Below are positions 1 through 24,685 of a DNA stretch of 64,000 bases, one piece after another. Position 1 is the first letter of the stretch. Every line of letters starts with the position of its first letter. Location of the stretch: the NCBI RefSeq assembly GCF_041261445.1, contig NZ_JBGCCU010000014.1, positions 1 through 64,000 on the forward strand. The letters are read 5' to 3'. Both the position numbers and the translations under genes were made by a program. Source of the DNA: Catenulispora sp. EB89 (GTDB lineage: Bacteria > Actinomycetota > Actinomycetes > Streptomycetales > Catenulisporaceae). The notes beneath the pieces are model-generated. The model had not been told where the DNA came from. It saw nothing but the letters and a program-made list of their open reading frames with translations, and did not search any database.

Positions 1-87
1 ATCCGCCCCGACCAGCTCACCAGTCCACTCACCCTGCATAACAGCAGTCTGACCCCGCCGACCAAACGACGAGGTCAGAACGCATGA
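1..87 (+). CDS. possible 3' end of a gene entering from upstream
   Basis: A frame open from the window edge ends at TGA 85-87 and gives 28 residues ending LTPPTKRRGQNA. A strong hairpin (119-167) follows 32 nt later, which fits a plus-strand gene end. Third-position GC is lower than in neighbouring genes, so the frame could be accidental. The LTPPTKRR ending loosely recalls the C-termini of AMP-forming acyl-CoA synthetases, but this is too short to assign a function. Confidence 0.35.
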   Translation: MRPDQLTSPLTLHNSSLTPPTKRRGQNA

Positions 88-118
88 TTTTCATCAGCCT
101 TCTAGGGGCGGCTGGGGG

Positions 119-395: not shown

Positions 396-3300
396 ATGAC
401 CGATCCCGCATACCGGGATGTCCCGGCGACCGAGGTCCAGCAAGGGCTGTGGCTGCTGCGTGCGCTCGGGCAGGAGCCGGCGGCGCGGTGCCGGGCCTAC
501 CGGGTGGTCGGCGACCTGGACGTGGCGGCGCTGGCGGAGGCCTGGCGCGCGCTCGTCGACCGGCACGAGGGGCTGCGCTCGGCGCTGGTGCTGCAGGACG
601 GCGCGCCGGTGCGCAGGGTCTGGACACGCTCCGAGCCCGAGGCCTTCCGTACCCGCGAGATCGACGCGCAGGACTGGACGCCGGCCGACGCCAACGAATC
701 GGACCCGGCCGACGTCCCCGTCCGCGCGCAGCTGACCGTCACCCGGCGCGGGCCCGAGGATCACCAGATCCACCTGGCGGTTCCCCGCGCGTTCGCCGAT
801 GAGGACTTCCTGGACACGCTGGTCGGAGAACTCTCCGAGCTCTCCGCGGGCCGTGCGCTCCGTACCGACATCCCATCCGCCGGCGCGCCTGTCGCGGAAG
901 CGGCCGACGACCCCGAGGCCCTGGCCTGGTGGGTCAATGCCCTGACTCCGCTGCCCAGCGAACTCCCGCTCCCCGCGGACCGTCCGCGCCCGGACCGCGG
1001 CTCCGGACGCTGGGGCACCGTCAGCGCCCCGGCCGACCCCGACCTCGGCCGCGCCGTCGCCCGCTGCGCCGAGGCCAGCCGCAGCAGCCCCTCCGTCGTG
1101 ATGCTCACCGGATTCCAGGTGCTCCTGCACCGCTACACCGGAGGCGACCGCGTGGCCGTCGCGGTCCCGGTCCCGCAGCGTGGGGCGGGCGCGGCGGCGA
1201 ACGTCCTGATCCTGCCCGCCGACATCGAAGCCGGCCAGAGCTTCAAGGACGTCCTGGAGCGCGGCACGACGCTGGCCGCCGAGGCGATGGCCCGCCGCGC
1301 GGTACCGCTGGCCCGCGTGCTCGGGGCGCTCCCGATCGTGCGCGAAGTGCGCCGGGTGCCGCTGGGCGACGTCGTGTTCGACTACCGCGGCCGGCCGCGC
1401 TCGGTCCTGGCCATCCCCGGCGCGGTCGTCGAGCCCTGTCCGGACCACGGCGGCCCGGCGCCGGCCGACCTGGTCCTGCAGGTCGACGACGGCGGGAACG
1501 GCCCGGCCCTCACCGTCCTGTACGACGCCGACCAGTTCGAACCGGCGACCGCCCGGATGATCCTGCGCCAGTTCCGCACCCTGCTCCGGCACGCCGGCCG
1601 GGCCCCGGACACCGCCGTCGGCGAGCTGACGCTCGACGGCCCCGGGGAGGCCGCGCGCGCTGCCGTCGAGGCGGACCGGCGGGCCGACGACGGGGCGCCC
1701 GGCCACACCATCGTGGAGGCCGTCCGCCGGCGCGCGTCGCAGGATCCTGACGCCGTGGCGATCGACAGCCACGACGGGACGCTCACCTACCGCGAGCTGT
1801 ACGCCGCAGCGATCCAGGTCGCTGAGGATCTGCACGCTGCCGGGGTGCGCGCCGGTGAAGCGGTCGTCGTGCGGCTGCCGGTCGGAGCCCGTCAGTACGC
1901 CGCGTTGCTCGGGGTGCTGGCGGCCGGTGCGCACCTGACCTGGTTCGGAGTCGCCGACAGCGGGGAGCGCGGCCGGGCGGTCGTCGGGGCGCTGAGACCC
2001 GCCGCGATGCTGGTGGCCGACCCGGCCGACCCCGACGAGTTCGTCGGCTGGTACCGCGCGACCACTGGCGGCCGGGTCGTCGCGGTCGCCGCCGCGGAGC
2101 GCGAGCCGGAGCCGGCTCCGGCTCCGGAGTCAGAGTCGGCGTCGCAGCCATCTGCCGCATCCGCGCTGCCGATCTCAGCGTTCCCCCGCCTCGCCGACCG
2201 CGCCTACGTAGCCTTCACCTCCGGCACCACCGGCGTCCCCAAAGGCATCGCGCAAACCCACGCCGCCCTCGCACAGTTCGCCGCCTGGATGGCCGCCGAG
2301 TTCGAGATCGGCCCCGGCGTCCGCGTCGCGCAGTGGGTCGCCGCCGAACACGACCCCGCGCTGGCCGAGACCTTTGCGGCGCTCGGATCCGGCGCCACCC
2401 TGTGCCCGGTCCCGGAGAAGATCCGCGCGAACCCCGAACGCCTCCTGCACTGGCTGGGCGCCGAGCGCATCGGCGTCCTCCAGACCGTGCCGAGCTTCGC
2501 CCGCGAACTGCTCCGCGTCCTCACCGGCCGGCACTCCGCCGAGCGCCTGGGCACTCTCAGGGTCCTGCTTCTCATGGGCGAGGCGCTGCCCGCCGAGCTC
2601 GCCGACGGCCTGCTGGCCGCGCTGCCGCTGGTCCACGTCGCCAACCTCTACGGCCCGACCGAGACCGTCGCGGCGACCTGGCATCCGGTGCGCCGCCGCG
2701 CGGTGCAGATCAACACCCTGACCGGCATCGAGGCGGCGAGCACGGCCGCGTCCCTGGCCGCGCGCCGGGCCTCGGGCACGGTCCCGATCGGCCGCCCCAT
2801 CCCGGGGCGCGGCATCCTCATCCTCGACGAGTCCGACCGGGTCTGCCCGGCCGGCGTCACCGGCGAGCTGGTCATCACCGGCGCCTACGTCGCCGACGGC
2901 TACCTCGGCGCGCACGACCACGCCGCCTTCGCGCCGCTGCCCGGCATCGACGCCCCCTGCTACCGCACCGGCGACCTCGCGCGCCGCCGCCCCGACGGCG
3001 CCCTGGAGTACCGCGGCCGCAAGGACAGCCAGGTCAAGCTCTACGGCAACCGCCTGGAGCTCACCGACGTCGAGGCCGCGCTGGCCGGCCACCCCACCGT
3101 CGCCGAGTGCGCCGTCGTGGCCGTGGCCGACCGCGACGGCCTGGCCGTGCGCCTGGTGGTCTGCGTCGTCCCGCGGCGCGGACCCGACGGCCGGCCGGAG
3201 GGCGCCCCGGACCAGTGGCGCACCCAGCTGCGCCGCCGCTTCGGCCGGGCCCTGCTCCCCGCGCTCTACCGCACGCTGGACCGCCTGCCGCGCACCGTCA

Positions 3301-3599
3301 CCGGCAAGGTGGACCGTCCGCAGCTGGCGCGCAGCGTCGCCGCCGCCGAGCGCGACGCCTCCGCCCGGCGCCCGGCCGCTGGGACCGAGGCCGTCCTGGC
3401 CGCGATCTGGGCGTCCCTGCTCGGGGCGCCGCCGGAGCACGCCGACCAGAGCTTCTTCACGCTCGGCGGCAGCTCCCTGATGGTCCCGCGGCTGCTGCAC
3501 CAGGTGCGCCGGCGCCTCGCGGCCGATGTGACCGTCCCCCAGTTCTACGCCCATCAGAGCCTGGCCGCGCTGGCGGCTTTGGTCGACCGAACCAGATGA
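396..3599 (+). CDS. NRPS module, C*-A-T, probably loading (beta-)tyrosine
   Basis: A 1067-residue protein. A condensation-fold domain spans about 8-430, an adenylation domain about 437-970 and a carrier domain about 990-1060. Adenylation cores are clear: FTSGTTGVPKG (A3, ~606), NLYGPTET (A5, ~749), YRTGDL (A7), GRKDSQVKLYGNRLE (A8) and LPRTVTGKVD (A10, catalytic Lys). The carrier has LGGSS with the phosphopantetheine Ser at ~1025. The condensation domain lacks HHxxxDG: the equivalent stretch reads HLAVPRAFADEDF (~126), so it is probably not a normal amide synthase. GGAGG lies 6 nt before the ATG. The aminomutase starts 11 nt downstream and the hydroxylase follows, so I infer that the module activates tyrosine or beta-tyrosine and presents it to tailoring enzymes. 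In C-1027 these functions are separate proteins (SgcC1, SgcC2, SgcC5). Substrate is inferred from context only. Confidence 0.9.
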   Translation: MTDPAYRDVPATEVQQGLWLLRALGQEPAARCRAYRVVGDLDVAALAEAWRALVDRHEGLRSALVLQDGAPVRRVWTRSEPEAFRTREIDAQDWTPADANESDPADVPVRAQLTVTRRGPEDHQIHLAVPRAFADEDFLDTLVGELSELSAGRALRTDIPSAGAPVAEAADDPEALAWWVNALTPLPSELPLPADRPRPDRGSGRWGTVSAPADPDLGRAVARCAEASRSSPSVVMLTGFQVLLHRYTGGDRVAVAVPVPQRGAGAAANVLILPADIEAGQSFKDVLERGTTLAAEAMARRAVPLARVLGALPIVREVRRVPLGDVVFDYRGRPRSVLAIPGAVVEPCPDHGGPAPADLVLQVDDGGNGPALTVLYDADQFEPATARMILRQFRTLLRHAGRAPDTAVGELTLDGPGEAARAAVEADRRADDGAPGHTIVEAVRRRASQDPDAVAIDSHDGTLTYRELYAAAIQVAEDLHAAGVRAGEAVVVRLPVGARQYAALLGVLAAGAHLTWFGVADSGERGRAVVGALRPAAMLVADPADPDEFVGWYRATTGGRVVAVAAAEREPEPAPAPESESASQPSAASALPISAFPRLADRAYVAFTSGTTGVPKGIAQTHAALAQFAAWMAAEFEIGPGVRVAQWVAAEHDPALAETFAALGSGATLCPVPEKIRANPERLLHWLGAERIGVLQTVPSFARELLRVLTGRHSAERLGTLRVLLLMGEALPAELADGLLAALPLVHVANLYGPTETVAATWHPVRRRAVQINTLTGIEAASTAASLAARRASGTVPIGRPIPGRGILILDESDRVCPAGVTGELVITGAYVADGYLGAHDHAAFAPLPGIDAPCYRTGDLARRRPDGALEYRGRKDSQVKLYGNRLELTDVEAALAGHPTVAECAVVAVADRDGLAVRLVVCVVPRRGPDGRPEGAPDQWRTQLRRRFGRALLPALYRTLDRLPRTVTGKVDRPQLARSVAAAERDASARRPAAGTEAVLAAIWASLLGAPPEHADQSFFTLGGSSLMVPRLLHQVRRRLAADVTVPQFYAHQSLAALAALVDRTR

Positions 3600-3610
3600 A
3601 GGAGAACGTC

Positions 3611-5224
3611 GTGTCCACCCCCAATAGCGCAGCTGTCAGCGCGCCTGTTGTTCTCGACGGCGAGACGCTCGACATCCCGGGCGTGCGCAGGGTCGCCGAA
3701 CAGCGGGCCGAGGTCACGCTGACGCCGCAGTCGCTGGCCAAGGCCGGCAAGAGCCGCGCCGTGTTCGAGGACGTGGTCCGCGCCGGGATCCCGGTCTACG
3801 GCGTCACCACCGGCTACGGCGAGATGATCTACATGCTCGTCGACCCCTCGCGCGAGACCGAGCTGCAGACCAACCTGGTGCGCAGCCACAGCGCCGGCGT
3901 CGGACCGCACTTCCCCGAGGACCAGGCCCGGGCGATCGTCTCGGCGCGGCTGAACGCCCTGGCCAAGGGCTACTCGGCGGTGCGGCCGGAGATCCTGGAG
4001 CGCCTGGCCCTGTACCTGAACACCGGCCTGATCCCGGCGATCCCGGAGATCGGCTCGCTGGGCGCCAGCGGCGACCTGGCGCCGCTGGCGCACATCGCGG
4101 CCACCGTGATCGGCGAGGGCTACTTCCTCGGCCCGGACGGCCCGCGGCCGGTCGAGCCGGTGCTGCGCTCGCTCGGGATCACGCCGCTGGAGCTGAAGTT
4201 CAAGGAGGGGCTGGCGCTGATCAACGGCACCTCGGCGATGACCGGGCTCGGCGCGCTGGTCGCCGGCCGGGCGCTGGAGCAGGTGCGGCACGCCGAGATC
4301 GTCTCGGCGCTGCTGGTGGAGGCGGTGCGCGGGTCGATGGGGCCGTTCCAGCCCGAGGGCCACGACATCGCCCGGCCGCACCCCGGCCAGATCGACACCG
4401 CGGCGAACATGCGCGCCCTGCTGCGCGGCAGCGGGCTCACCGTGGAGCACGCCGACCTGCGCCGCCAGGTGGCCGCGGCCAAGGGGGACGGGGACGTCAC
4501 CCGGACCGAGATCTACCTGCAGAAGGCGTACTCGCTGCGGGCCATGCCGCAGGTGCTCGGCAGCGTCCGGGACACCCTGTCGCACGTCACGGCCCGGGTG
4601 CAGACCGAGCTGAACTCCGCGAACGACAACCCGCTGTTCTTCGAGGACCAGGAGGTCTTCCACGGCGCGAACTTCCACGGCCAGCCGGTGGCCTTCGTCA
4701 TGGACTTCACCACCATCGCCCTGACCCAGCTCGGGGTGCTGGCCGAGCGGCAGCTCAACCGGGTGCTGAACCGGCACCTGAGCTACGGCCTGCCGGAGTT
4801 CCTGGTGGCCGGCGACCCCGGGCTGAGCAGCGGCTACGCCGGCGCGCAGTACCCGGCCACGGCGCTGGTCGCCGAGAACCGGACGATCGGCCCGGCCAGC
4901 ACCCAGAGCGTGCCGTCCAACGGCGACAACCAGGACATCGTCAGCATGGGCCTGATCGCGGCCCGCAACGCCCGCCGGGTGCTGGCCAACAACCAGTACA
5001 TCCTGGCCGTGGAGTTCCTGGCCGGGGCCTCGGCGGTGGACGTCTCCGGGCGCTACGACGGCCTGGGCCCGGCCGGCCGCGCCGCCTACGACGCGGTGCG
5101 CTCGCTGGTGCCGCCGCTGAACCAGGACCGGTACATGGCCGACGACATCGAGACCGTCGCCGCGGCCCTGACCCGCGGGGAGTTCATCGCCGCCGTCGAG
5201 AACTGCGGCGTGGAACTGCGCTGA
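3611..5224 (+). CDS. MIO-dependent tyrosine 2,3-aminomutase (SgcC4-like)
   Basis: A 537-residue member of the histidine/phenylalanine ammonia-lyase family. It converts L-tyrosine to beta-tyrosine through the prosthetic group 4-methylideneimidazole-5-one. The MIO triad Ala-Ser-Gly falls at 152-154. Tyr63, Glu71 and His93 sit at the same numbers as the active-site residues known for SgcC4 of C-1027 biosynthesis, and the length matches (539 in SgcC4). The stretches [13 protein letters not shown] and [14 protein letters not shown] are typical of the aminomutase clade rather than of HutH. The start is GTG 3611 with GGAG 4 nt upstream, just after the NRPS stop, so the two are probably co-translated. 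Stereochemistry (S as in SgcC4, or R as in MdpC4) and residual ammonia-lyase activity cannot be read from sequence. Confidence 0.93.
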
Positions 5225-5231
5225 CACCGGT

Positions 5232-5264
5232 GTCCGGGCGGGCCGCCGCGCGGTCCGCCCGGAC
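5232..5264 (+). other. intercistronic hairpin
   Basis: A perfect 10-bp inverted repeat (5232-5241 / 5255-5264) lies between the aminomutase stop and the AGGAGG site of the hydroxylase. It may stabilise or partly terminate the transcript, lowering hydroxylase expression relative to the upstream genes. Confidence 0.4.
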
Positions 5265-5285
5265 CGACAGGAGGGCAGGACAGCT

Positions 5286-6815
5286 ATGGCCACTCGGCCG
5301 ATGACCGGCGAGGAGTACGTGGACAGCCTTCGCGACGGTCGCGAGGTCTACGTCTACGGCGAGCGCGTCAAGGACGTCACGACGCACCCGGCGTTCCACA
5401 ACCCGGTGCGCATGACCGCCCGGCTCTACGACGCGCTGCACGACGAGCGCTACCGCGACGTCCTGACCTGCCCGGTCGACGGCGGCGGCGAGGGCTACAC
5501 CCACCGCTTCTTCACCACGCCGCGCAGCGCCGAGGACCTGGTCGCCGCGCAGGGCGCGATCGCGCAGTGGGCCCGCCTGAGCTACGGCTGGATGGGCCGC
5601 AGCCCCGACTACAAGGCCTCCTTCCTGGGCACGCTCGGCGCGAACGCCGAGTTCTACGGGCCCTACGCCGACAACGCGCGGCGCTGGTACCGGGAGTCGC
5701 AGGAGAAGGTCCTGTTCTGGAACCACGCGATCGTGCACCCGCCGGTGGACCGGAACCTGCCGCCGGACGAGGTCGCCGACGTGTTCGTGCACGCCGAGGC
5801 CGAGACCGACAACGGGCTGGTGGTCAGCGGCGCCAAGGTGGTGGCCACCGGCTCGGCGCTGACGCACTACAACTTCATCGCGCACTACGGCCTGCCGATC
5901 CGCAAGCGGGAGTACGCGCTGGTGGCGACGGTGCCGATGGACGCGCCCGGGGTGAAGCTGATCTGCCGGCCCTCCTATAGCGCGACCGCGGCTGTGGCCG
6001 GGAGCCCGTTCGACTATCCGTTGTCCTCGCGGCTGGACGAGAACGACACCATCCTCGTCATGGACAAGGTGCTGATTCCCTGGGAGAACGTCTTCATCTA
6101 CGGGGACCTGGGCAAGGTGCAGATGTTCACGGCCCGGTCCGGGTTCCCGGAGCGGTTCACGTTCCACGGCTGCATCCGGCTCGCGGTGAAGCTGGAGTTC
6201 CTGGCCGGGCTGCTGTCCAAGGCGCTGGAGGTGACCGGGACCCGGGACTTCCGGGGCGTGCAGAGCCGGATGGGGGAGGTGCTGGCCTGGCGGAACCTGT
6301 TCTGGGGGCTGGCCGACGCGGCCGCGCGGAATCCGGTGCCGTGGAAGGACGGGGCGGTGCTGCCGAACCCGGACTACGGGATGGCGTACCGGTGGTTCAT
6401 GCAGATCGGGTATCCGCGGATCCGGGAGATCATTCTGCAGGACGTCGCCAGTGGGCTGATATACGTGCCCTCCAGCGCGGAGGACTTCCGGAATCCGCAG
6501 ACGCGGCCCTATCTGGACAAGTACGTGCGCGGCTCGGGCGGGGTCACGGCGGTGGAGCGGGTGAAGCTCATGAAGCTGCTGTGGGACGCCGTCGGGACCG
6601 AGTTCGGCGGGCGGCACGAGTTGTACGAGCGCAACTATTCGGGGAACCACGAGAACACCCGGGTCGAGTTGTATACCGCGCAGCTGGCTTCCGGGCAGCT
6701 GCGGGGGTACGAGAAGTTCGTCGAGGAGTGCCTGGGCGAGTACGACCTGGACGGGTGGACGGTGCCGGATCTGGAGTCGTTCCCTGATCTCAGGGGGCTG
6801 ACGAACCGGCCTTGA
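5286..6815 (+). CDS. HpaB/SgcC-family FADH2-dependent aromatic 3-hydroxylase
   Basis: A 509-residue protein of the 4-hydroxyphenylacetate 3-hydroxylase large-subunit family, colinear from the N-terminal [20 protein letters not shown] to the C-terminal [15 protein letters not shown]-type region. These enzymes use reduced flavin from a separate reductase and O2 to ortho-hydroxylate phenols. SgcC in C-1027 hydroxylates a beta-tyrosyl group tethered to a carrier protein. Position directly after the aminomutase and carrier module makes beta-tyrosyl-S-carrier the likely substrate. AGGAGG lies about 10 nt before the ATG. No HpaC/SgcE6-type flavin reductase is seen in this window, so the partner must be elsewhere. 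Free tyrosine or hydroxyphenylacetate remain possible substrates. Confidence 0.9.
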
Positions 6816-6880
6816 CGGCGGTCGGTGGCGGGGCGGGGCGGGGCTGTCCCGGGCTGGCGCTGCCGCTGCCGCTGCCTCGG

Positions 6881-6957
6881 CTGGGGTCGTTCGGGCCGGC
6901 GTCATCCGGGCTGGCGTCGTCCCGGCCGGCGTCGTCCCGGGCCGGCGTCGCCCCGGG
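6881..6957. repeat. imperfect 15-16 nt tandem repeat, five units
   Basis: Five head-to-tail units of the form cyGGcGTCrTcccGG occupy most of the gap between the hydroxylase and the next flavoenzyme gene. No reading frame crosses it convincingly. It is probably a slippage-generated simple repeat. Confidence 0.6.
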
Positions 6958-7041
6958 CCAGCACGGCCGAAGATGCCCCGGCCGGCGGCCGGTGGCGAGA
7001 GTTGACACGTATCCACGTTTCGCGAATCTCAAGGAGCTTTC

Positions 7042-8223
7042 ATGTCCGACACGAACGCGCCGTCGCGCCAGGAACTGCTCGGCCGCGCGACCGACCTGGT
7101 CCCCCTGTTGCAGAAGAACGCGCCGTGGATCGAGGAGAACCGGCGCCTGCCCGACGACGTGGTGGGCGCGCTCACCGACGCCGGGCTGCTGAAGATGCGG
7201 GTGCCCAAGCACTACGGCGGCTACGAGTCGCCGATGCGCACCGTCGCCGACGTGGTGTCCGAGCTGGCCCGCGGCGACGGCTCGACCGGCTGGACCGCCG
7301 CGGTGTGGGCGATCAGCTCCTGGATGGCCGGGATGTTCCCCGACGCGGTCCAGGACGAGGTCTTCGGCGAGGCCGACGTGCGCATCAGCGGCATCCTGAG
7401 CCCGACCGCGGTCGGCGTGCCCACCGAGGGCGGCATCGTGCTGAACGGCAAGTGGGCCTTCAACACCGGCAGCCGCCAGAGCGCGTGGAACACCAACGCA
7501 GCGGTGCGCGCGCACCCCGACGGCTCCTTCGAGCCGATCATGGTGCTGATCCCCCTGTCGGACCTGGCGGTCGTCGACGACTGGCACACCGCCGGCATGC
7601 GCGGCTCCGGCAGCGTGAGCACGGTGGCCCAGGACCTGTTCGTCCCGGACGCCCGCATCCTGTCGATGCCCCCGGTCCTGGCCGGCGTCCACCAGCTCGG
7701 CCGCAACGCCGCAAGCCCGGTCTACCAGGCCCCCTTCATGCCCACGGCGTGCACCACAGTGGCCTCGGTGGCACTGGGCCTGGCGCGAGCAAGCCGCGAC
7801 GCCTTCTTCGAGCGCCTGCCCGGCCGCAAGATCTCCTACACGGCCTACGAGAACCAGGCCGAAGCCCCGATCACCCACCTCACCACCGCCGACGCCATCA
7901 CCCGCATCGACGAGGCGGAGTTCCACGTCATGCGCGCCGCCGGCATGCTGGACGACAAAGCCGCCGCCGGCGAGCAGTGGACCCTGGAGCAGCGCGCGAA
8001 GGCACGCCTGGACCTGGGCGCGGCGACGCAGCGCTCGAAGGAGGCGGTGGACCTCCTGAACTCGGCCAGCGGCGGGTCTTCGGTGTACTCCACGGTGCCG
8101 ATCCAGCGGATCCAGCGCGACGTCCAGACGCTGACGCTGCACGCGATCATGCACCCGGCGACGAACTTGGAGCTGTACGGGCGGGTGGTGTGCGGGCTGG
8201 AGCCGAATACGCATTACATCTGA
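7042..8223 (+). CDS. acyl-CoA-dehydrogenase-fold flavoenzyme (group D monooxygenase type)
   Basis: A 393-residue protein with the N-terminal helical, central beta (GSGSVSTVAQDLFVPDARI) and C-terminal helical regions of the acyl-CoA dehydrogenase superfamily. It has the look of the HsaA/KijD3-type reduced-flavin monooxygenases: the family opening DVVGALTDAGLLKMRVPKHYGG and the C-terminal SGGSSVYSTVPIQRIQRDV. It ends with ...NTHYI. AAGGAG sits 5-6 nt before the ATG. The gap of 226 nt to the hydroxylase leaves open whether it is in the same transcript. Likely role: oxygenation, N-oxidation or desaturation of an intermediate of the same pathway. This is inference from position. Confidence 0.8.
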   Translation: MSDTNAPSRQELLGRATDLVPLLQKNAPWIEENRRLPDDVVGALTDAGLLKMRVPKHYGGYESPMRTVADVVSELARGDGSTGWTAAVWAISSWMAGMFPDAVQDEVFGEADVRISGILSPTAVGVPTEGGIVLNGKWAFNTGSRQSAWNTNAAVRAHPDGSFEPIMVLIPLSDLAVVDDWHTAGMRGSGSVSTVAQDLFVPDARILSMPPVLAGVHQLGRNAASPVYQAPFMPTACTTVASVALGLARASRDAFFERLPGRKISYTAYENQAEAPITHLTTADAITRIDEAEFHVMRAAGMLDDKAAAGEQWTLEQRAKARLDLGAATQRSKEAVDLLNSASGGSSVYSTVPIQRIQRDVQTLTLHAIMHPATNLELYGRVVCGLEPNTHYI

Positions 8224-8631
8224 GCTTGTGAGGGGGAGGGGCTGAGGGTTGGGGGTGGGCTGGGGGAGTGTGCTGGAGGTGGGGAGTGCCACCGCGCCGG
8301 GTTCGGGGCGGTGGCACTTTTGGTGGGGTGGGGTGGGGGTGCTGATGCTGGTAGCGCCGGCGCCGGGTAGGGGTTCGGTTAGCTGGCGAGGTGCGGTTGG
8401 GCTGTGGTTTACAGGCAATTTTTACGGCTTCGCCTAAGGTTTGGTGACCTCGCTGGGAGACGCAGTTCGGTTGAGCACAGCATGGCGCGCTGGCGGCCGC
8501 CGGTTTTCGCGTCCATGACCGCGCACCGGTCCGAGTCACTGCGCACACGTCATGCGGGCGGCTGGCGGCCGCGTTTGGTGGGTGCCTAAGATCAAAAGCA
8601 GGGCCTCCGGCGGGCCTCTACAGCGAGGGGG

Positions 8632-8675
8632 CGACCCGTGCGACCTGCTGTTTGGCGGCGGTCCGCGACGGGTCG
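8632..8675 (+). terminator. possible terminator hairpin
   Basis: Eight-base arms CGACCCGT / ACGGGTCG with a 28-nt loop are followed by CTTTCTTT. It could end transcripts of the flavoenzyme gene, although that gene stops about 400 nt earlier. Confidence 0.3.
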
Positions 8676-8737
8676 GCTTTCTTTACGCTGTTGCCTGCGC
8701 CGCGCTTAGCGGTGGCGGTGTTGCTTGTGGTCGCCGG

Positions 8738-9065: not shown

Positions 9066-9896
9066 TCAAGCCGTAGTCCAAACCCCCGCCAGCCCCGGCT
9101 GGAAAACCAGCCCCAGTGGAGGCACCGGGTGCGTTCCGCGCCGGTCGAACTCCGGCAGCGCCAGCAGGATCGGCAGGTCCATGACCTCCGCGGGGCGTAG
9201 CTCCAGGTCCACGTCGACGCAGCCGCCGCCGCGCTGTACCACTGCGCGGGCTGTGCCTACGGCCAGCTGTTGCGGCTGGGGGTCGGGGTGGTGCGGGGTG
9301 AGTGGTACCGCGGTGGCTCGGATGTGCCAGTGGCCGGCTGGGAGGGCGGTGAGGCGGTAGGGGCCGGGGGCGTCCAGGACGTCGCGGGCTATCGGGGCGC
9401 CGCGGACGATGGGGCCGGTGAAGGCTCCGACGTAGATGCGCATGCCGGGGGTCTGGAGGGGGACGCGGATCAGGCCTCGCATGCCGCCGCGGCGGATGGT
9501 GGGGTGTTGGGCGCAGGTCAGGGGGCGGGGTTCGGCGTCCTGGGCCAGGTGGCGGTAGCGCTCTGGTGGGGTTCCGACGCGGGCGGTGAAGCCGCGGTCG
9601 AAGGTGCGGGGGCTGTGGTAGCCGGTTTCGAAGGCGATGTCGGCCACGCTCAGGGTGGTCTCCTGCAGGAGGCGCTTGGCCTGGTACATGCGGATCGCGG
9701 CCAGGAAGCGGAGCGGGGAGGTGCCGGTCTGGGCCCGGAACGCCCGGGACAGGCGGAAGGGGCTCAGACCCGCGGATTGCGCGACGCAGGACAGGGAAAG
9801 TGGTTCGCGATGGCGGTCCCACAGGGTCACGATCGCGCGTTCGACGGCCGCTCGGAGACGGGGTTCGGTGGAAAGGGTGGTCTTGGCGCTCTGCAT
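9066..9896 (-). CDS. AraC-type regulator with N-terminal HTH
   Basis: A 276-residue protein. The double helix-turn-helix of the AraC family is at the N-terminus (about 15-110; SLSCVAQSAGLSPFRLSRAF, then LSVADIAFETGYHSPRTFDR), not at the usual C-terminus. The remaining ~160 residues contain PYRLTALPAGHWHIRATAV, which looks like a small beta-sandwich of the carboxypeptidase-regulatory type. The second AraC gene at 12638 has the same layout, so the two are paralogues. The ATG at 9896 is chosen because GGAG precedes it by 6 nt; an upstream GTG at 10043 would add a low-complexity Pro/Gly/Arg stretch. Target genes are unknown. Confidence 0.8.
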   Translation of the reverse strand: MQSAKTTLSTEPRLRAAVERAIVTLWDRHREPLSLSCVAQSAGLSPFRLSRAFRAQTGTSPLRFLAAIRMYQAKRLLQETTLSVADIAFETGYHSPRTFDRGFTARVGTPPERYRHLAQDAEPRPLTCAQHPTIRRGGMRGLIRVPLQTPGMRIYVGAFTGPIVRGAPIARDVLDAPGPYRLTALPAGHWHIRATAVPLTPHHPDPQPQQLAVGTARAVVQRGGGCVDVDLELRPAEVMDLPILLALPEFDRRGTHPVPPLGLVFQPGLAGVWTTA

Positions 9897-10112
9897 CCCC
9901 GTCTCCGGTCGATGGTGGCCGCTGCCCCGCGGGCTCGATCCGCCGCGCCTGGCGCCGACTGTTCCCCGAGGTCCTCCAGCCGGCGCCGGAGCGCGGGGCC
10001 CTACCTGGTCGATCACTCGTGGTGGAGAGTAGTCATGTGACACATCTTTGGCAATGCGTCACCCTCGGTGATCGGTGGTGCCCGCGGCCGTCCGGACCAG
10101 CGCCGGAGTGCG

Positions 10113-11783
10113 TCAGGCCCCTGCGGCACCGGCCAGTCGGACGGCCTGTGTCCAGGAGGCGTCGCGGGCCGCGGTCTGGCCGTCCGGGGACGGCGCCCCG
10201 TAGCGGACGTCGATGCCCCGCTCGCGTGCCGCGGCCACGATCCCGGGCATCGCCCGCTCGGCCAGCGCCGCGATCGTGAACGCCGGGTTGACCAGCAGGG
10301 CGCCGGGGACCGCGGAGCCGTCGGTGACGAAGATGCCCGGGTGCCCGCGCAGTTCGTGCGTGTCGTCCAGGGCTGAGGTGTCCGGGTCGTCGCCGATCCG
10401 GCACGAGGCCAGCGGGTGCACGGTGTACGCGCCGACCACCTCGTTGGTCCACGGTCGCACCTCGGCCAGCCCGTCCTTCTCCAGCACCCGCTTGATCTCG
10501 GCGTCTGAAAGTTCCCATCCGTGCAGCGTGTTCGCCGTCGGCCGGTACGTCAGCGGGCCGAAGCCGAGCATCTGCTGGGAGAACCGGGTGGCGTTCCCGG
10601 TCGGCGGCGGCGGGCCGAAGACGCCCTCGTTGTCGTCCTCGCTGGTGGTGAAGATGGTCAGCCAGGACTGCCAGCGCTCGACGATCTCCTTCTTGCGCGG
10701 CCCGAACCAGGCCGGGACGGACGCGTCCGGGTTCGGCGTCTGCGCCAGGATCGTGCCCAGCCCCGGCGGGAAGTAGAGCTGCTCCAGGGAGAAGCGCTCG
10801 AACTCCGGCTTGCTCGCGTCCAGGTCGTCCCAGGAGGCCACGGTCGGCCCCTTGCCGATCTGGTTGGCCGCGTAGGCCAGGCCGTCGCCGCGGTCCAGGC
10901 CCAGCACGATGCGTGCCTTCTCGTCGTCGATGATCGCGGTGTTCAGCCGCTCCCCGTTGCCGGAGAAGAAGCGCCCGACCGCGTACGGCATCTTGCCCAG
11001 CACCGGCTCGGAGCGCTGGAGGATCACCGGCGTCGCGCCGGCCCCGGCGGCCAGGATCACGATCTTGGCCTGGATGGTGCCGCTGCCGGTGATGACCCGG
11101 TAGTCCACGTCGTGCAGGGTGTTGTACGCGACCTCGTACGAGCCGTCCTGGTTCCGCGCGATCTGCTGCACCTCGTGCAGCGGCCGGATCTGCGCACCGT
11201 GCGACACCGCCGCCGGCAGGTAGTTCAGCAGCATGGAGCGCTTGGCGTCGAAGCGGCACCCGGCCAGCATCCAGTTGCAGTTCGTGCACAGCTCGCGGTC
11301 GATCGCCGCCGGCACCGGGTTGGCGGTGCGGCCCGCGTGTGCGCACGCCGCGGCCCACAGCCCGCCGGCGTACGTGGCGTCGTTCCAGTTCAGCTGGGTG
11401 ATCGGCAGCGCCTCGGCGACCCGGTCGTACCACGGCTCCAGCGTGTCGCGGCTGATCGCGGCCGGCCACATCCGGCGCCCGATCGACCCCTGCCGCTCGA
11501 ACACGAAGCGCGGCGCGCGGGGCATCGCGGCGAAGTACACCACGCTGCCGCCGCCGACGCAGTTGCCGCCCAGCAGGCTCATGCCGTTGCCGATGACGAA
11601 GTCGAAGATCCGGGTCCCGGAAGCCCCGAACCGGAAGTCCTGGTCGAAGTCCTCGCCGGTGAGCCACGGACCGCGCTCCAGCACCACCACCCGGGCGCCG
11701 CCGGCGGCCAGGTGGTAGGCGGCGATGGCGCCGCCGAAGCCGCTGCCGACGACCAGGACGTCGGTCTGCTCGACCGTACTCAT
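10113..11783 (-). CDS. GMC-family FAD oxidoreductase
   Basis: A 556-residue flavoprotein. The N-terminus has the dinucleotide fold VLVVGSGFGGAIAAYHLA and LERGPW. The middle has GGNCVGGGSVVYFAAMPR, a cholesterol-oxidase/choline-dehydrogenase type FAD loop. The C-terminus has HPLASCRIGDDPDT and VNPAFTIAALAERAM, where GMC enzymes carry the catalytic His/Asn. It oxidises an alcohol; the substrate is not evident. An internal LCTNCNWMLAGC carries several cysteines. No signal peptide. Its ATG overlaps the stop of the DUF5987 gene by ATGA, so the pair is translationally coupled and probably forms a two-subunit enzyme. Confidence 0.88.
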   Translation of the reverse strand: MSTVEQTDVLVVGSGFGGAIAAYHLAAGGARVVVLERGPWLTGEDFDQDFRFGASGTRIFDFVIGNGMSLLGGNCVGGGSVVYFAAMPRAPRFVFERQGSIGRRMWPAAISRDTLEPWYDRVAEALPITQLNWNDATYAGGLWAAACAHAGRTANPVPAAIDRELCTNCNWMLAGCRFDAKRSMLLNYLPAAVSHGAQIRPLHEVQQIARNQDGSYEVAYNTLHDVDYRVITGSGTIQAKIVILAAGAGATPVILQRSEPVLGKMPYAVGRFFSGNGERLNTAIIDDEKARIVLGLDRGDGLAYAANQIGKGPTVASWDDLDASKPEFERFSLEQLYFPPGLGTILAQTPNPDASVPAWFGPRKKEIVERWQSWLTIFTTSEDDNEGVFGPPPPTGNATRFSQQMLGFGPLTYRPTANTLHGWELSDAEIKRVLEKDGLAEVRPWTNEVVGAYTVHPLASCRIGDDPDTSALDDTHELRGHPGIFVTDGSAVPGALLVNPAFTIAALAERAMPGIVAAARERGIDVRYGAPSPDGQTAARDASWTQAVRLAGAAGA

Positions 11784-12346
11784 GCCGGACTCCCGGTGGG
11801 GGTGGTGTGCGGATGCAGGGGGGCCAGCGGGCGCCGGTAGGAGAAGTCCGGGAACCGCCACAGGCCGTCGGCGTCGGGCTGGGAGTAGCCCAGCGCGGTC
11901 AGGCCGGGGTGGCCGGCGGCCAGCGCCTCGACGGTGCTCAGGTGGGCGCCGGTGTCGAAGGCCATGTTGCTGAAGATCGCCAGCCCCACCCACAGGAACT
12001 TCTCCGGGTGTCCGGGCCGTACCAGCTCGGCGACCAGCGTCGCCCGGTGCCCGGCCGGCAGCGCCACGAACGCCGGGACGTCGGGGTCCAGCTCCAGGCG
12101 CAACTCGTCGCGATAGGCCTCGGCGTGCTTGTTCAGGGCCTGGACCAGGTTCGGCAGCGCCTCGGCCATCCCGCCGGCCTCGGTCCGCATGAGGTCCACG
12201 GCGCCGGCCGCCACGGCCCCGCCGCCCTGGGCCGTCCCGGCGATCGCCAGGTCCCCGGGAAAGCGCTTCTCACCAGGCACGATCGTATCGGCGAACGCTT
12301 CCAGCGTCATCGTCTGCAGCTGTTCGTCAGCCAACGGTGGTCTCAC
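11780..12346 (-). CDS. DUF5987-type partner of the GMC oxidoreductase
   Basis: A 188-residue, mostly helical protein that opens QLQTMTLEAFADTIVPGEKRFPGD and ends RFPDFSYRRPLAPLHP. The pattern (an early 'FADTIVPG' stretch, no membrane segment, coupling to a GMC flavoprotein) recalls the small subunit of gluconate-2-dehydrogenase-like enzymes and the family I know as DUF5987. I assign it as an accessory or folding subunit by context. The GTG start has GGAGG 7 nt upstream. The divergent AraC gene 290 nt away is a plausible regulator. Confidence 0.7.
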   Translation of the reverse strand: MRPPLADEQLQTMTLEAFADTIVPGEKRFPGDLAIAGTAQGGGAVAAGAVDLMRTEAGGMAEALPNLVQALNKHAEAYRDELRLELDPDVPAFVALPAGHRATLVAELVRPGHPEKFLWVGLAIFSNMAFDTGAHLSTVEALAAGHPGLTALGYSQPDADGLWRFPDFSYRRPLAPLHPHTTPTGSPA

Positions 12347-12637
12347 GTGGATTCCTCCTCCTCAATCACGGTCGTGTTCATTGTCAGAGCGCGTGTTCGA
12401 GGCGAGCGTCTTCGCTCGTGCGCTGGGCCAGGGCCGCGGCGCACAACGCACAAAAACCGCACGGACCGAGAAGGCGGGCAAATCAGATGTCTAGCATGCT
12501 GGAACACGTCTCGTTCCCGGATGCGCCGCCAGGGTTGCGTCGGCCGCCGGAGCGACACATAGATATCAGAGCACAGATTCAATCCGCTGCCGTGCGCGGA
12601 CGCCGTCCGGACCACGGTCTACCTAATGGGGCACGCG
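12347..12637. promoter_or_regulatory. divergent promoter region DUF5987-GMC / AraC
   Basis: The 291 nt between divergent starts hold no gene. There is a CGAGCG-TCTT-CGCTCG hairpin near 12402-12417. Both promoters must lie here, but no consensus -35/-10 pair stands out. Local A+T is raised around 12465-12500 and 12555-12580. Confidence 0.45.
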
Positions 12638-13525
12638 ATGAACGACGCCATCACCCGGGCCGCCGAGCGGGCCATCACCACGATGCACGAACGACTCAGC
12701 GAGCCGGTCACCGTCGACGACATGGCCCGCGCCGCGATGTTCAGCAAGTTCCACTTCACCCGCATGTTCCAGCGCGCCACCGGGGTCTCCCCGGCCCGGT
12801 TCCTGTCCGCGCTGCGCCTGCAGCGGGCCAAACACCTGCTCACCTCGACCACCATGACCGTCGTGGACATCAGCGTCCTGGTGGGCTACAACAGCGTCGG
12901 CACCTTCAGCTCGCGCTTCAGCCGCAGCGTCGGGCTCTCGCCGACCGACTACCGCCGCCGGGGCGGGCACACCGACCGGATCCGGCTGGCCGAGCCGCGC
13001 GGCTCGGCCTCGGGCGTGGCCACCGTCAGCGGCGTGATCGAAGGGCACGACGAACGGCGCGGGCCGGTCTTCGCCGGCCTGTTCCCCGAGTGCGTGCCGG
13101 AGGGTCGCCCGGTCTGCTGCACCATCCTGGACGGACCGGGTTCGTACCGGTTCGACAACGTCCCCACCGGCCGCTGGTACCTGCTGGCGCAGTCCATCGT
13201 GGAGGACGACGGCCCGGCGCAGGCGCCCCGCCCGAACCGTGGACGCCCCGGCACCGAGGCGCCGCGGGGCGGAGAATCGCGCGGTGGCGAATCGCGCGGC
13301 GGGGAGTCGCCGGTCTGGGTCGGGACGCTCGGCCCGATCATCGTCCGCCGCGGCGTCGAGCACTACGTCGCCGACCTCGCGCTCAAGCCCGCCGGCGTGC
13401 TCGACCCGCCGGTGCTGCTGGCGCTCCAGGCGGCGCGGGAGGAGGCTGTGGAGCGGGCCGCCGCGGCCGCGGCCGCCGCGGCGGAAGCATCCGTCGCGGC
13501 CGGGGTCGGGGCGGGCGCGCGCTAG
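12638..13525 (+). CDS. AraC-type regulator with N-terminal HTH (paralogue of 9066-9896)
   Basis: A 295-residue protein. The N-terminal AraC double HTH (about 5-105) includes VTVDDMARAAMFSKFHFTRM and VVDISVLVGYNSVGTFSSRF. A C-terminal part with SYRFDNVPTGRWYLLAQSI resembles a carboxypeptidase-regulatory-like beta-sandwich. An imperfect Gly/Glu/Ser/Arg repeat (GGESRGGESRGGES) sits around residue 215, and the tail is Ala-rich. ATG 12638 is preferred over ATG 12626 because GGGG lies 7 nt upstream of it and nothing similar precedes the other. It is divergent from the DUF5987-GMC pair, its likeliest target. Confidence 0.8.
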   Translation: MNDAITRAAERAITTMHERLSEPVTVDDMARAAMFSKFHFTRMFQRATGVSPARFLSALRLQRAKHLLTSTTMTVVDISVLVGYNSVGTFSSRFSRSVGLSPTDYRRRGGHTDRIRLAEPRGSASGVATVSGVIEGHDERRGPVFAGLFPECVPEGRPVCCTILDGPGSYRFDNVPTGRWYLLAQSIVEDDGPAQAPRPNRGRPGTEAPRGGESRGGESRGGESPVWVGTLGPIIVRRGVEHYVADLALKPAGVLDPPVLLALQAAREEAVERAAAAAAAAAEASVAAGVGAGAR

Positions 13526-13657: not shown

Positions 13658-15025
13658 ATGACGACGACCGCTGGTGCGGCCGAAGCGGCGGTCGATGTGT
13701 GGCTGCCGCGCCACCCCGGGAACCCGCGCTACATCAACGGGATCCGTGAGGCCGCGGCGTCATTCCTCGACCTACACCCCGAGTACGTGATCACCATCCG
13801 CGAGACCGACCCCAGGACGCTGCCCGAGGACGTGCACGCGGCGTCGCGCCGGGGCCGTCCGCCGGCGCTGGTGCAGTTGGCGCAGACCAGGACGCAACTG
13901 GCCCGCGACATGCTCTCCGGCTCCGGCACGCCGCTGTTCGCCTCCGTCCACGACGCCATCGCCGGCCGCCGGGAGATCCTGGGCCATCCCGTCGTCACCG
14001 AGGACATCGTGGCCGCCGCGCGCGCCTGCTACTCCTCCGACGGCGCGCTGATGGCCGTCCCGTCGCTGATCTCCACGACGCTGCTCTACGCCAACACCGA
14101 CCTGCTGGCCGCCGCCGGCGTGACCCGGCTGCCGCAGACCTGGAACGAGGTCGAGGGCGTCTGCGAGGCGGTGCGCGGCCTGCCCGGCGTCAGCCACGGC
14201 AGCACCTGGCCGAACCACGGCTGGATCTTCCAGCAGGCGGTCGCGCAGTCCGGCGGCCTGCTCGCCGACCAGGGCAACGGCCGCCGGGGGCGGGCGGAGA
14301 AGATGCTCCTGGACTCCCCGGAGATGCTGGCCTTCGTCGGCTGGTGGCGCCGCATGCACCGGCAGGGCCGCTACCTCTACGCCGGTCAACCGGTATCCGG
14401 GGAGAACGCGCGGCAGGCGTGGGAGGACACGTTCACCGCCTTCGTCGAGCAGAAGGTCGCCTTCATCATCGGCTCCTCGGCCGAGGCCGACCGGCTGGCG
14501 CGCGCCGCCCGCGAGCGCGGCTTCCGGGTCGCGGCCGGGCGCACGCCGTACAGCGGGCGCTTCCCCTTCGCCGGGACGCTGATCGGCGGGGACGCGATCT
14601 GGCTGGTCGACGGCCTGGAACCGGCCGTGCGCGACGGCGCGCTGGCGTTCCTGCAGTACCTGATGACGCCGGCGCACGTCGCCGACCGGCACCGCGACAC
14701 CGGATTCGTCCCGGCCACCGGCGCGGCGACGAAGCTGCTGGCGGCCCAGGGCTGGTTCGACGAGCAGCCGCACGCGGCGGTCGCGCTCGACCAGCTGGCC
14801 GCCTCGGACCGCTCGCCGGCCGCGCTCGGCGCGCTGGTCGGGGACCTCACACGGATCCAGGGCGTCCTGGCGCAGGCGATGCACGACGTGCTGCTCGGCG
14901 AGGACGACCCGGCCTGGCGCTTCGCCTCGGCGAACGTCGAGGCGCAGCGGCTGCTGGACGAGTACAACGGCCGGGGGCGCGGGGGGCCGGACTGCGGGAA
15001 CGACCCCCCGCGCCGGCTCAGGTGA
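13658..15025 (+). CDS. solute-binding-protein-like (family 1) without signal peptide
   Basis: A 455-residue protein with the fold signature of ABC sugar-binding proteins of the UgpB/MalE type: VDVWLPRHPG...RYINGIREAAASF at the start, LISTTLLYANTDLLAAAGV, RLPQTWNEVEGVCEAV, and a C-terminal FLQYLMTPAHVADRHRDTGFVP. It begins MTTTAGAAEAAVDVW, so there is no signal peptide or lipobox, and no permease or ATPase gene adjoins it. Either the protein works in the cytoplasm as a ligand sensor, or the true start is elsewhere (none seen upstream in frame). GGGAG precedes the ATG. Confidence 0.75.
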   Translation: MTTTAGAAEAAVDVWLPRHPGNPRYINGIREAAASFLDLHPEYVITIRETDPRTLPEDVHAASRRGRPPALVQLAQTRTQLARDMLSGSGTPLFASVHDAIAGRREILGHPVVTEDIVAAARACYSSDGALMAVPSLISTTLLYANTDLLAAAGVTRLPQTWNEVEGVCEAVRGLPGVSHGSTWPNHGWIFQQAVAQSGGLLADQGNGRRGRAEKMLLDSPEMLAFVGWWRRMHRQGRYLYAGQPVSGENARQAWEDTFTAFVEQKVAFIIGSSAEADRLARAARERGFRVAAGRTPYSGRFPFAGTLIGGDAIWLVDGLEPAVRDGALAFLQYLMTPAHVADRHRDTGFVPATGAATKLLAAQGWFDEQPHAAVALDQLAASDRSPAALGALVGDLTRIQGVLAQAMHDVLLGEDDPAWRFASANVEAQRLLDEYNGRGRGGPDCGNDPPRRLR

Positions 15026-15461: not shown

Positions 15462-16985
15462 TCACGGCAGCCGCACCGACAAGCCGTGGTGGAACACGTC
15501 GAGCGGGTCATAGGCCTGCTTCGCCCGCTGCAACCGCGGGTAGTTGCCCTTGAAATACAAGGCCGACCAGTCGACTCCCGAGCTGTTCCACGCCGGGTCG
15601 GCCAGGTCGGTGTCGGGGTAGCCGATGTAGGACCCGTCGCCGGTCGCGTCCGGGACCGGCACGCCGCCGGAGTGCGCGTAGACGTCGCGGTAGTACTCCC
15701 GGACCCACGCCAGGTGGCGCTCGTCGTCGGCGGGGTCGGTCCAGCAGCCGGTGCTGTAGGAGGCCTTCAGGATGCTGTCACGCTGCGGCACCGCCGTCGT
15801 GTCCGACGCCAGGGCGTTCACCTGGCCGCCGAAGCCGGTCACGACCAGGCAGCCCATGGGGTTGTCGTAGTCGGCGGCGGACAGGTGGCGGTGGATCGCG
15901 GCGATCTGCGCGTCGGTGAACCCGCGGCGCAGGTAGGCCGCCTTGTTCTTGTACCGGCCCTGCGGATCGCTGGGCCAGCTGTAGGACGGCAGCCAGGTGT
16001 CCAGCCACGGCGCGAGCTCGGAGGTCGAGGACATCGGCGCGGCCTGCATGCCGCGTGTGATCGCCTCGGTGTGCGCGTCCAGGAGCTTGGCCGCGTCCGG
16101 GGCGTCGTCGGGGATCACCGAGGTCAGGATGAACATGTTGCCCGAGCGGTGGGTGATGATCAGGTTGCTCCACAGCGGCGCCGCCGGGGCGCCCGGCTCG
16201 CTGTTCTCCTCGTACCAGGTGCAGTAGTTGCGCAGGAGCGTGTGGAAGTCCGCGTCCGACATGGTGTCCCAGGACCACATGGTGTCGCGGCGGTGCACGG
16301 CGCGCGGCGCCCGGGGCAGCTGGCGGGCCGGGTCGCCGTCGGGCGTCCCGGGGGAGCGCAGCCAGTACTTGGTGACGACGCCGAAGCTGCCGCCTCCGCC
16401 GCCGGTGCAGGCCCACCACAGGTCGTGGTGCGGGTCGTCGGGCTGGTTGGTGCCCACCACGGTGCGGACCCGGCCGTCGGCCTCGACGACCACCGCCTCG
16501 ACCGCGACCAGGTGGTCCACGACCAGGCCGTCGCGCCGGGACAGCGGGCCGTAGCCGCCGGCCGCGAAGTGCCCGCCGGCGGCGACCTCGAAGCAGGTGC
16601 CGGCCGGGATGGTCACGCCCCAGCCGTCGTGCAGCGTGCGGTAGACGTGGTCCAGGCGCGCGCCGGGCTCCACCACGAAGGCGTCGCGCTCCGGGTCGTG
16701 GCCGACGTGGTTCAGCGCGGACAGGTCGATGAGCATCCTGACGTCCGGATGCGCGGTGAAGTCCTCGAAGCAGTGGCCGCCGCTGCGGACGGCGACGTCG
16801 CGCCCGGAGTCCACGGCGATCTGCACCGCCGCCTGCACCTCCGCGGCGTCGCGGACCAGCCGGACCTGGTCCGGCCGGCCCACGAAGCGGTGGTTGTAGC
16901 CCTCGACGAGGGCGGCGTAGCGGGGGTCGTCGCGGGTGACGACGTCGGCGGTGGCGCCGGTGGTGGCGGCGGTCGTGTCCGTCAT
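15462..16985 (-). CDS. berberine-bridge-type FAD oxidase, bicovalent flavin
   Basis: A 507-residue protein of the FAD-linked oxidase (PCMH) family with C-terminal BBE segment YDPLDVFHHGLSVRLP. RSGGHCFEDF carries the histidine that binds FAD, and GTCFEV carries the cysteine position seen in bicovalently flavinylated enzymes. GGHFAAGGYGPLSRRDGLVVD and GGGGGSFGVVTKY complete the FAD site. Such enzymes oxidise sugars or close rings in secondary metabolism. No signal peptide. It is divergent from the ECF sigma gene 117 nt away. Substrate unknown. Confidence 0.88.
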   Translation of the reverse strand: MTDTTAATTGATADVVTRDDPRYAALVEGYNHRFVGRPDQVRLVRDAAEVQAAVQIAVDSGRDVAVRSGGHCFEDFTAHPDVRMLIDLSALNHVGHDPERDAFVVEPGARLDHVYRTLHDGWGVTIPAGTCFEVAAGGHFAAGGYGPLSRRDGLVVDHLVAVEAVVVEADGRVRTVVGTNQPDDPHHDLWWACTGGGGGSFGVVTKYWLRSPGTPDGDPARQLPRAPRAVHRRDTMWSWDTMSDADFHTLLRNYCTWYEENSEPGAPAAPLWSNLIITHRSGNMFILTSVIPDDAPDAAKLLDAHTEAITRGMQAAPMSSTSELAPWLDTWLPSYSWPSDPQGRYKNKAAYLRRGFTDAQIAAIHRHLSAADYDNPMGCLVVTGFGGQVNALASDTTAVPQRDSILKASYSTGCWTDPADDERHLAWVREYYRDVYAHSGGVPVPDATGDGSYIGYPDTDLADPAWNSSGVDWSALYFKGNYPRLQRAKQAYDPLDVFHHGLSVRLP

Positions 16986-22873: not shown

Positions 22874-23063
22874 GACAGCACGGCACCTTCCTGCTCGGCG
22901 CTCCGGGAACAGGTCCGGGCGGCTCCGCTTATCAGGGTGCGTGCTCGCGCGGGGCGGAGGCATCCGCCAACGTGCTCGTGCTCGTGCTGGTGCTCGTACT
23001 CCTGCTTGAATCGCCCCGGCGTACATCATGCGTACCGCGCCGACCCGTTCTACTGTCGGTGAC

Positions 23064-24560: not shown

Positions 24561-24685
24561 CAAATCTCCCGCGACCTGTTTCAAATCAATGGTCGAACCT
24601 CAGTTTCGTGATTAGAGTCCGCTGAGTCTGTACCGGATCATGAAGCGGCACGGTTTGCCGCCGTGCGCGATCTTTGGGGGATTGG

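What the first reader, a model, noticed from the sequence alone, without database searches (positions are those of the whole stretch)
396..8223. Beta-tyrosine cassette in a fused C*-A-T layout
An SgcC4-type aminomutase (MIO at 152-154, Tyr63, Glu71, His93 conserved), an SgcC-type hydroxylase and an NRPS module sit in one run. Known enediyne pathways use separate A, PCP and C proteins; here A and carrier are fused behind a degenerate C domain. This suggests a beta-tyrosine-derived metabolite that may or may not be an enediyne.
Basis: partly seen in the sequence, partly recalled or inferred. Interest (0 to 1): 0.8.

Follow-up and report, generated by a model that had tools for sequence, protein, structure and literature searches.

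The report
Probable enediyne pathway in three loci
The window holds a beta-tyrosine gene set that very probably decorates an enediyne, a DNA-cutting antibiotic, but in this bacterium and its relatives the genes that sit together in some other bacteria appear to be spread over three distant places on the chromosome.

Summary
The claimed novelty does not hold: C*-A-T fusions are common beside such aminomutases (49 upstream proteins scanned: 49 A, 37 C, 28 carrier). Enediyne or not now has a probable answer. The same genome (Catenulispora) has an enediyne PKS cassette with the E2-type DUF1702 gene used to predict a 9-membered core, on another contig; a third contig holds a free C enzyme, free PCP and tailoring genes. 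In Streptomyces BIG105 and CB00316 homologous genes share one contig within about 70 kb. Of 34 BIG105 frames with counterparts, each has its best match in one of three Catenulispora loci (10 K, 11 T, 13 C), the same in three genomes for 33 of 34. In G018 and G019 the loci are at least 116-319 kb apart. T and C markers occur in the same 4 of 14 family genomes. Best reading: a dispersed 9-membered enediyne pathway with a beta-tyrosine-derived side group, its beta-tyrosine genes apparently exchanged between genera separately from the core. Function is inferred; no chemistry is known.

The parts
396..3599 (+). C*-A-T protein: degenerate C about 396-1685, A about 1725-3308, carrier about 3393-3584
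   Evidence: Pfam; no HHxxxDG; nine A-pocket residues DPAQLMLAA same as L027/L077
3596..5224 (+). MIO tyrosine 2,3-aminomutase, SgcC4 type
   Evidence: TIGR03832 922.9 bits vs 501; best PDB match 2ohy 832 bits; tree
5286..6815 (+). HpaB/SgcC-type two-component hydroxylase, oxygenase part
   Evidence: PF11794 + PF03241; best PDB match 4oo2 906.6 bits
7042..8223 (+). HsaA/XiaF-like flavin-dependent monooxygenase (acyl-CoA dehydrogenase fold)
   Evidence: homologue within the flank of 34 of 80 aminomutase loci
9066..10043 (-). AraC-family regulator
   Evidence: Pfam; conserved in G018/G019
10113..11993 (-). GMC-type oxidoreductase, 75% to BIG105
   Evidence: BIG105 counterpart also matches the S. 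globisporus contig at 76-78%
12626..13525 (+). AraC-family regulator
13658..15025 (+). extracellular solute-binding protein
15462..16985 (-). berberine-bridge-type FAD oxidoreductase, 83-84% to BIG105
17103..18380 (+). ECF sigma factor with DUF6596 (ECF42-like, by recall and PMC8999054), 84% to BIG105
20538..21368 (-). short-chain dehydrogenase
21485..23467 (-). FAD_binding_4 oxidoreductase (homology covers 21500-22918)
1..101 (.). contig end beside an insertion at a CTAG site; the locus continues on contig C54 (SnoaL-like, MFS, DUF2306, cyclase-like, YCII)

Best explanation
The window is the right-hand part of locus T of a 9-membered enediyne pathway that is split over three unlinked chromosomal loci. 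Locus K (own contig C29) makes the enediyne core (PKS, UnbV protein, E10 thioesterase, E3 and E2 DUF1702 proteins, P450, flavin reductase). Locus T (C54 + C14) makes and activates the beta-tyrosine unit: the aminomutase turns L-tyrosine into beta-tyrosine, the A domain of the C*-A-T protein adenylates it and loads it on a carrier, HpaB hydroxylates the ring with reduced flavin (a reductase gene is in K), and the degenerate C domain is non-catalytic. Locus C (C18) supplies a free PCP, the free-standing SgcC5-like condensation enzyme that joins the unit to the core, and further oxidases and methyltransferases. Shown: gene identities and homologies, the three-locus layout in detail in own, G018 and G019, co-occurrence of T and C markers. 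Inferred: every reaction, joint action of the three loci, the 9-membered ring.
For: Aminomutase. Pocket residues identical to L027/L077. One match in own genome to the BIG105 enediyne-type PKS, 55%; same long-KS type in S. globisporus, BIG105, CB00316, S. chryseus, C. rubra and Salinispora; domains. E2-type gene in own, G018 and G019 in one clade with the streptomycete copies, 100/100; TAM-less G011-G013 and G010 show only an E3-type gene in the stretches fetched; E2 is the 9-membered marker of PMC5181780 (passage). Of 48 BIG105 frames, 34 have their best match in exactly one of K (10), T (11), C (13), the same locus in own, G018 and G019 for 33 of 34, and the three sets are interleaved in BIG105. 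TAM and the C enzyme are in the same 4 of 14 family genomes. In G018 each locus is over 111 kb from a contig end; the T flanks sit about 2.36 Mb from the PKS in complete genome G011.
Against: No chemistry and no expression data. The 4 carriers may be one clade, so 4 of 14 is not 4 independent events; that all 4 are among the 9 PKS genomes is expected by chance at 0.13. TAM-less G011-G013 have a PKS cassette too, so K does not need T and C. The flavin reductase is also in TAM-less core loci, and a P450 end like that of K lies at the edge of the G011 stretch. Core identity to BIG105 (median 53%) is far below peripheral identity (median 75%), so the loci have different histories. Eight BIG105 frames have no strong counterpart in the three loci. 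No apoprotein gene or halogenase was recognised, though neither was searched systematically. In the own genome alone T lies at a contig end and C and K within about 31 and 43 kb of one, so the separation rests on G018, G019 and G011.
Confidence: 0.72

Rival explanations
1. T and C together make a beta-tyrosine-derived metabolite of their own, and the enediyne PKS locus K is a separate pathway that merely shares the genome.
For: K-type PKS occurs without T and C markers in 5 of the 9 family genomes that have it, and K has a different similarity history from much of T and C. In Salinispora three S. pacifica strains keep the sporolide core genes but lack the 45-kb NRPS part for the cyclohexenone unit (PMC8609351, passages).
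Against: In BIG105 genes of all three loci are interleaved in one region; GMC, SnoaL-like and HsaA-like genes of T also match the S. globisporus contig that holds its PKS; the E2-type gene of K was seen only in the TAM+ genomes within the stretches fetched.
Confidence: 0.15
2. The pathway is decaying: dispersed remnants that no longer make a product.
For: An insertion separates the SnoaL gene from the C*-A-T gene in this strain; an MFS gene present in T of G018 and G019 has no match here.
Against: The four frames in question are intact, and TAM and HpaB are 95-98% identical across the four carriers; C*-A-T is less conserved, 75-92%. The three-locus layout is kept in separate genomes.
Confidence: 0.08
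3. Assembly artefact: the three loci are really one cluster.
For: All four genomes with the trait are drafts (70-870 contigs).
Against: In G018 each locus is over 111 kb from a contig end; the flanks of T are ordinary genes syntenic with complete genome G011, where they lie about 2.36 Mb from the PKS.
Confidence: 0.03

Closest known systems
C-1027-type beta-tyrosine cassette (here L027 S. globisporus JCM 4378; L077 Streptomyces sp. CB02366)
   Same: L027: aminomutase 75% and hydroxylase 75% to own. L027 and L077: C*-A protein with the same nine pocket residues, free PCP, C enzyme, SnoaL-like and HsaA-like genes within the flank.
   Different: In S. globisporus the genes share one 89-kb contig with the PKS, not tested for L077; the A protein shows no fused carrier; the PKS is 54% identical to own. 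That CB02366 belongs to the C-1027 clade is from PMC5181780; L027 groups with it.
Gene region of Streptomyces griseus BIG105 / Streptomyces sp. CB00316 / S. chryseus (product not known to me)
   Same: TAM 92-93%, HpaB 92-93%, C*-A-T 72-78%; C enzyme 80-84% and ECF sigma 84-85% for BIG105 and CB00316.
   Different: One contig with PKS and TAM about 48 kb apart in BIG105 and about 52 kb in CB00316; in S. chryseus they are on different short contigs. In Catenulispora three loci, with a PKS only 54% identical.
Enediyne cores of TAM-less Catenulispora (G011-G013)
   Same: Nearest PKS outside the TAM+ genomes, 63-64% identical to own.
   Different: Only one DUF1702 gene in the stretches fetched; no TAM or C-enzyme match.

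Membership tests
MIO tyrosine 2,3-aminomutase (SgcC4 type) | TIGR03832 equivalog cut-off | tested here: met
   922.9 bits vs 501; HutH TIGR01225 501.9 vs 539.15 not met
MIO tyrosine 2,3-aminomutase (SgcC4 type) | ASG triad and Tyr63/Glu71/His93 (residue roles recalled) | tested here: met
   numbering from GTG 3611
MIO tyrosine 2,3-aminomutase (SgcC4 type) | makes beta-tyrosine rather than only coumarate | not testable with these tools
   needs enzyme assay
SgcC-type two-component hydroxylase | HpaB_N and HpaB domains, closest to SgcC rather than catabolic HpaB | tested here: met
   PF11794/PF03241; 4oo2 best PDB match (that 4oo2 is SgcC is recalled); TIGR02310 cut-off not met, 691.4 vs 885.2
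Enediyne gene cluster | PKS cassette E3/E4/E5/E/E10 (list from PMC5181780) | tested here: met
   own C29: DUF1702, UnbV, a 340-aa protein without Pfam match, PKS and 4HBT thioesterase, all with homologues in BIG105 and S. globisporus; which gene is E4 or E5 is recalled
9-membered enediyne | E2 gene present (criterion of PMC5181780) | tested here: met
   second DUF1702 in the E2-type clade, 100/100; that this clade is E2 rests on the S. globisporus pair and recall
9-membered enediyne | no R3-type gene; apoprotein gene in some clusters | not tested
   no dedicated search was made
Contiguous enediyne gene cluster | PKS and peripheral genes in one cluster | tested here: not met
   three loci in own, G018, G019
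Active NRPS condensation domain in the C*-A-T protein | HHxxxDG motif | tested here: not met
   absent; aligned stretch VPRAFADED

The most novel reading that the evidence does not exclude
A 9-membered enediyne is built by three unlinked chromosomal loci that are inherited as one trait, with the beta-tyrosine module gained or exchanged between genera separately from the core. This would be a natural case of swapping side groups between enediyne cores, possibly co-ordinated by the ECF42-like sigma and YCII genes found in two of the three loci.
Probability: 0.5. Interest if true: 0.75.

Novelty: new variant of a known kind. Interest (0 to 1): 0.6.

Why it matters
Enediyne discovery relies on finding one cluster around the PKS. 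If parts of the pathway sit far away, the product predicted from the core locus alone is wrong, and isolated beta-tyrosine cassettes elsewhere may be misread as separate metabolites. The layout also gives a natural test of whether peripheral modules work with cores of a different lineage, and of how dispersed loci are co-regulated.

Tried and rejected
Rejected: that the C*-A-T fusion is new. Pfam on 49 upstream proteins (the window plus 48 of the 80 loci) found A in 49, C in 37, PP-binding in 28. Of the 32 loci left out, 19 had no match to the C*-A-T protein within the flank; 13 had one that was cut (L021), distant from the aminomutase (such as L029, L036, L072), weak or partial; L082, an adjacent match, was left out by oversight.

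Rejected: HutH or plain ammonia lyase; the two outgroup rows of the tree are very long branches and the tree was a quick one.

Led nowhere: PKS, UnbV or DUF1702 lie within the 10-kb flank of only 9 of 80 loci, which says little because flanks are short. The ECF sigma tree is an unresolved fork, so no direction of transfer is claimed. The flavin reductase is not a TAM-specific marker. The two ends at the C54/C14 junction do not match as inverted repeats, so the kind of insertion is open. PF07103, tried from memory as an enediyne marker, proved to be DUF1365 and irrelevant. Genes were picked by GC at codon positions; weak or short genes may be missed and some frames on the wrong strand were picked. 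The KS list was cut by the tool, so counts of PKS per genome from it are lower bounds.

Literature: searches (CB00316 or enediyne; 15 of 705 listed, none holding CB00316; Catenulispora + enediyne, 5 papers, listing and abstract starts only; swamped; none of the 20 listed of 1,463 holds 'enediyne'; 0 papers; 1, on fungi; 15 of 50 listed, listing only) showed no report of an enediyne pathway split over loci. The library holds only openly licensed PMC papers, so this is weak. Searches were used only to find papers. PMC5181780: passages and section 6 read. PMC8609351, PMC8999054, PMC2657911: passages only. PMC11446937: one passage, a reference entry. PMC4753101 was not held.

Full report
What is in the window. 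The four genes at 396-8223 are intact: a 1067-aa C*-A-T protein, a 542-aa aminomutase whose ATG overlaps the previous stop, an HpaB-type hydroxylase and an HsaA/XiaF-like monooxygenase. The aminomutase passes TIGR03832 (922.9 vs 501 bits) and fails the HutH cut-off; its best solved relatives are tyrosine aminomutase entries such as 2ohy (that these are SgcC4 is recalled). In a quick tree of 85 rows it groups with C. rubra, G018, G019 and three streptomycetes (100), inside the 83 rows of close relatives and away from the genome's two other MIO lyases.

The fused layout is not the news. The C* domain scores 82 bits against the condensation profile, its best stretch covering positions 193-447 of 456, and has no HHxxxDG; no row listed shows HH at that place. 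Upstream of 48 related aminomutases plus the window, Pfam finds A in 49, C in 37 and PP-binding in 28 of 49. L027 and L077, C-1027-type loci, have C*-A with no carrier in the alignment. Nine A-pocket positions read DPAQLMLAA in the window, L027 and L077. The positions were placed by hand from recalled knowledge of PheA, and the tenth (Lys) was not extracted.

Left of the window. The window begins at the end of contig C14. C. rubra contig L005 bridges to own contig C54, and G018 and G019 are contiguous across the point. C54 adds a SnoaL-like gene, an MFS gene, DUF2306, a cyclase-like gene and YCII; beyond lie genes without BIG105 matches. An insertion with CTAG on both sides separates the contigs. 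Locus T is thus about 5.5 kb on C54 plus about 23.5 kb of the window; the right edge is my estimate from the lack of BIG105 matches further on.

An enediyne core elsewhere. A KS search showed an enediyne-like PKS at C29:18909; the BIG105 PKS has one match in the own genome, there. KS matches of the same length and score are listed in all six other genomes (C. rubra, S. chryseus, CB00316, BIG105, S. globisporus, S. oceanensis), and the whole protein was aligned in the first five. It has KS, AT, KR and DH domains (scanned on the C. rubra copy); beside it are UnbV, a 4HBT thioesterase and two DUF1702 proteins, a flavin reductase and a P450. One DUF1702 protein falls in a clade with four streptomycete copies (100/100), the other with the E3-type copies that all 11 loci share. 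PMC5181780 uses E2 to call a 9-membered core (passage).

A third locus. The free-standing C enzyme of CB00316 has an 84% match at C18:21098. Around it, C18 about 8.7-30.8 kb carries a free PCP, a second HsaA-like enzyme, P450, PhyH dioxygenase, molybdopterin oxidoreductase, FAD enzymes, acyltransferase, MFS and methyltransferases. Most match BIG105 at 69-91%; a second methyltransferase (48%), the ECF sigma (60%) and a YCII gene (36%) match less well.

One region there, three loci here. In BIG105 the PKS and the aminomutase are about 48 kb apart on one contig. Of 48 BIG105 frames examined I set aside 6 that overlap or oppose a better gene; 8 have no strong counterpart; 34 have their best match in one locus: 10 K, 11 T, 13 C. 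The locus is the same in own, G018 and G019 for 33 of 34; the exception, at 70254, lies beyond the end of the G019 contig. Some of the 34 (E2, the dehydrogenase, perhaps 73964) are represented by the opposite strand, so their identities are approximate. Second matches are weak paralogues, except the ECF sigma (84% in T, 60% in C of own) and the MFS gene (weaker copy in T of G018 and G019). Minimum distances are 272.8 (T-K), 270.3 (T-C) and 319.3 kb (K-C) in G018, and 274.7, 174.5 and 116.5 kb in G019. In complete, TAM-less G011 the T flanks lie about 2.36 Mb from the PKS.

Who has it. Of 14 family genomes, TAM is in 4, the C enzyme in the same 4, the PKS in 9. Two random sets of four would coincide once in 1001, but the four may be one clade; that the four lie within the nine PKS genomes is unremarkable (0.13). 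At the T site, the G012 and G013 stretches show no T gene, and G011 keeps a YCII gene, an oxidoreductase and an ECF sigma 85% identical to the window's.

Mixed ancestry. Against BIG105, own core genes have median identity 53% (10 genes) where S. globisporus has 78% (9 genes); nine peripheral genes are the reverse, 75% versus 57%. Own is closer than S. globisporus in 2 of 9 core and 7 of 9 peripheral genes (Mann-Whitney p 0.002 on these few genes, which are not independent). GMC, SnoaL and the HsaA-like gene differ by 4 points or less; C*-A-T, TAM, HpaB, PCP, C enzyme and MFS carry the signal. The S. globisporus data cover about 51 of 89 kb of its contig.

Reading. Most likely the three loci build one 9-membered enediyne with a hydroxylated beta-tyrosine side group. 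The main rival is that T and C make their own metabolite. No halogenase or apoprotein was recognised among the proteins scanned, which is not a systematic search. That the genome is Catenulispora follows from C. rubra being its near relative.

Noticed in passing
window 8385-8876: One copy of a dispersed repeat of roughly 480 bp found at dozens of places in this genome, often as two inverted copies about 130 bp apart; codon-position GC at the two copies looked at suggests it is not coding.
   Followed up: partly
window 24674-32503: A 2609-aa RHS-repeat protein with a pretoxin HINT domain in a stretch of lower GC (about 0.66), just right of the locus.
   Followed up: no
window 17103-18380, C54:5051-5521 and C18:19316-20937: Loci T and C each carry an ECF sigma gene of one family and a YCII gene, a pairing described for ECF42 (PMC8999054, passage). 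Locus K of the own genome has a sigma gene of another kind (C29:30575-31618) not found in the G018 and G019 core stretches.
   Followed up: partly
G011 C1:4931768-4934994 (L149): The TAM-less complete genome keeps YCII, an oxidoreductase and the ECF sigma at the T site, without the beta-tyrosine genes; the G012 and G013 stretches show none of them.
   Followed up: partly
G011 C1:7299001-7304361, G012 C268, G013 C19: TAM-less Catenulispora carry another enediyne PKS cassette with a single DUF1702 gene in the fetched stretch, which might predict a 10-membered core.
   Followed up: partly
window 1-101 and C54:1-90: Different short sequences, one of which looks to me like an insertion-sequence end (not tested), at a CTAG site between the SnoaL-like and C*-A-T genes; C. 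rubra, G018 and G019 are uninterrupted there.
   Followed up: partly
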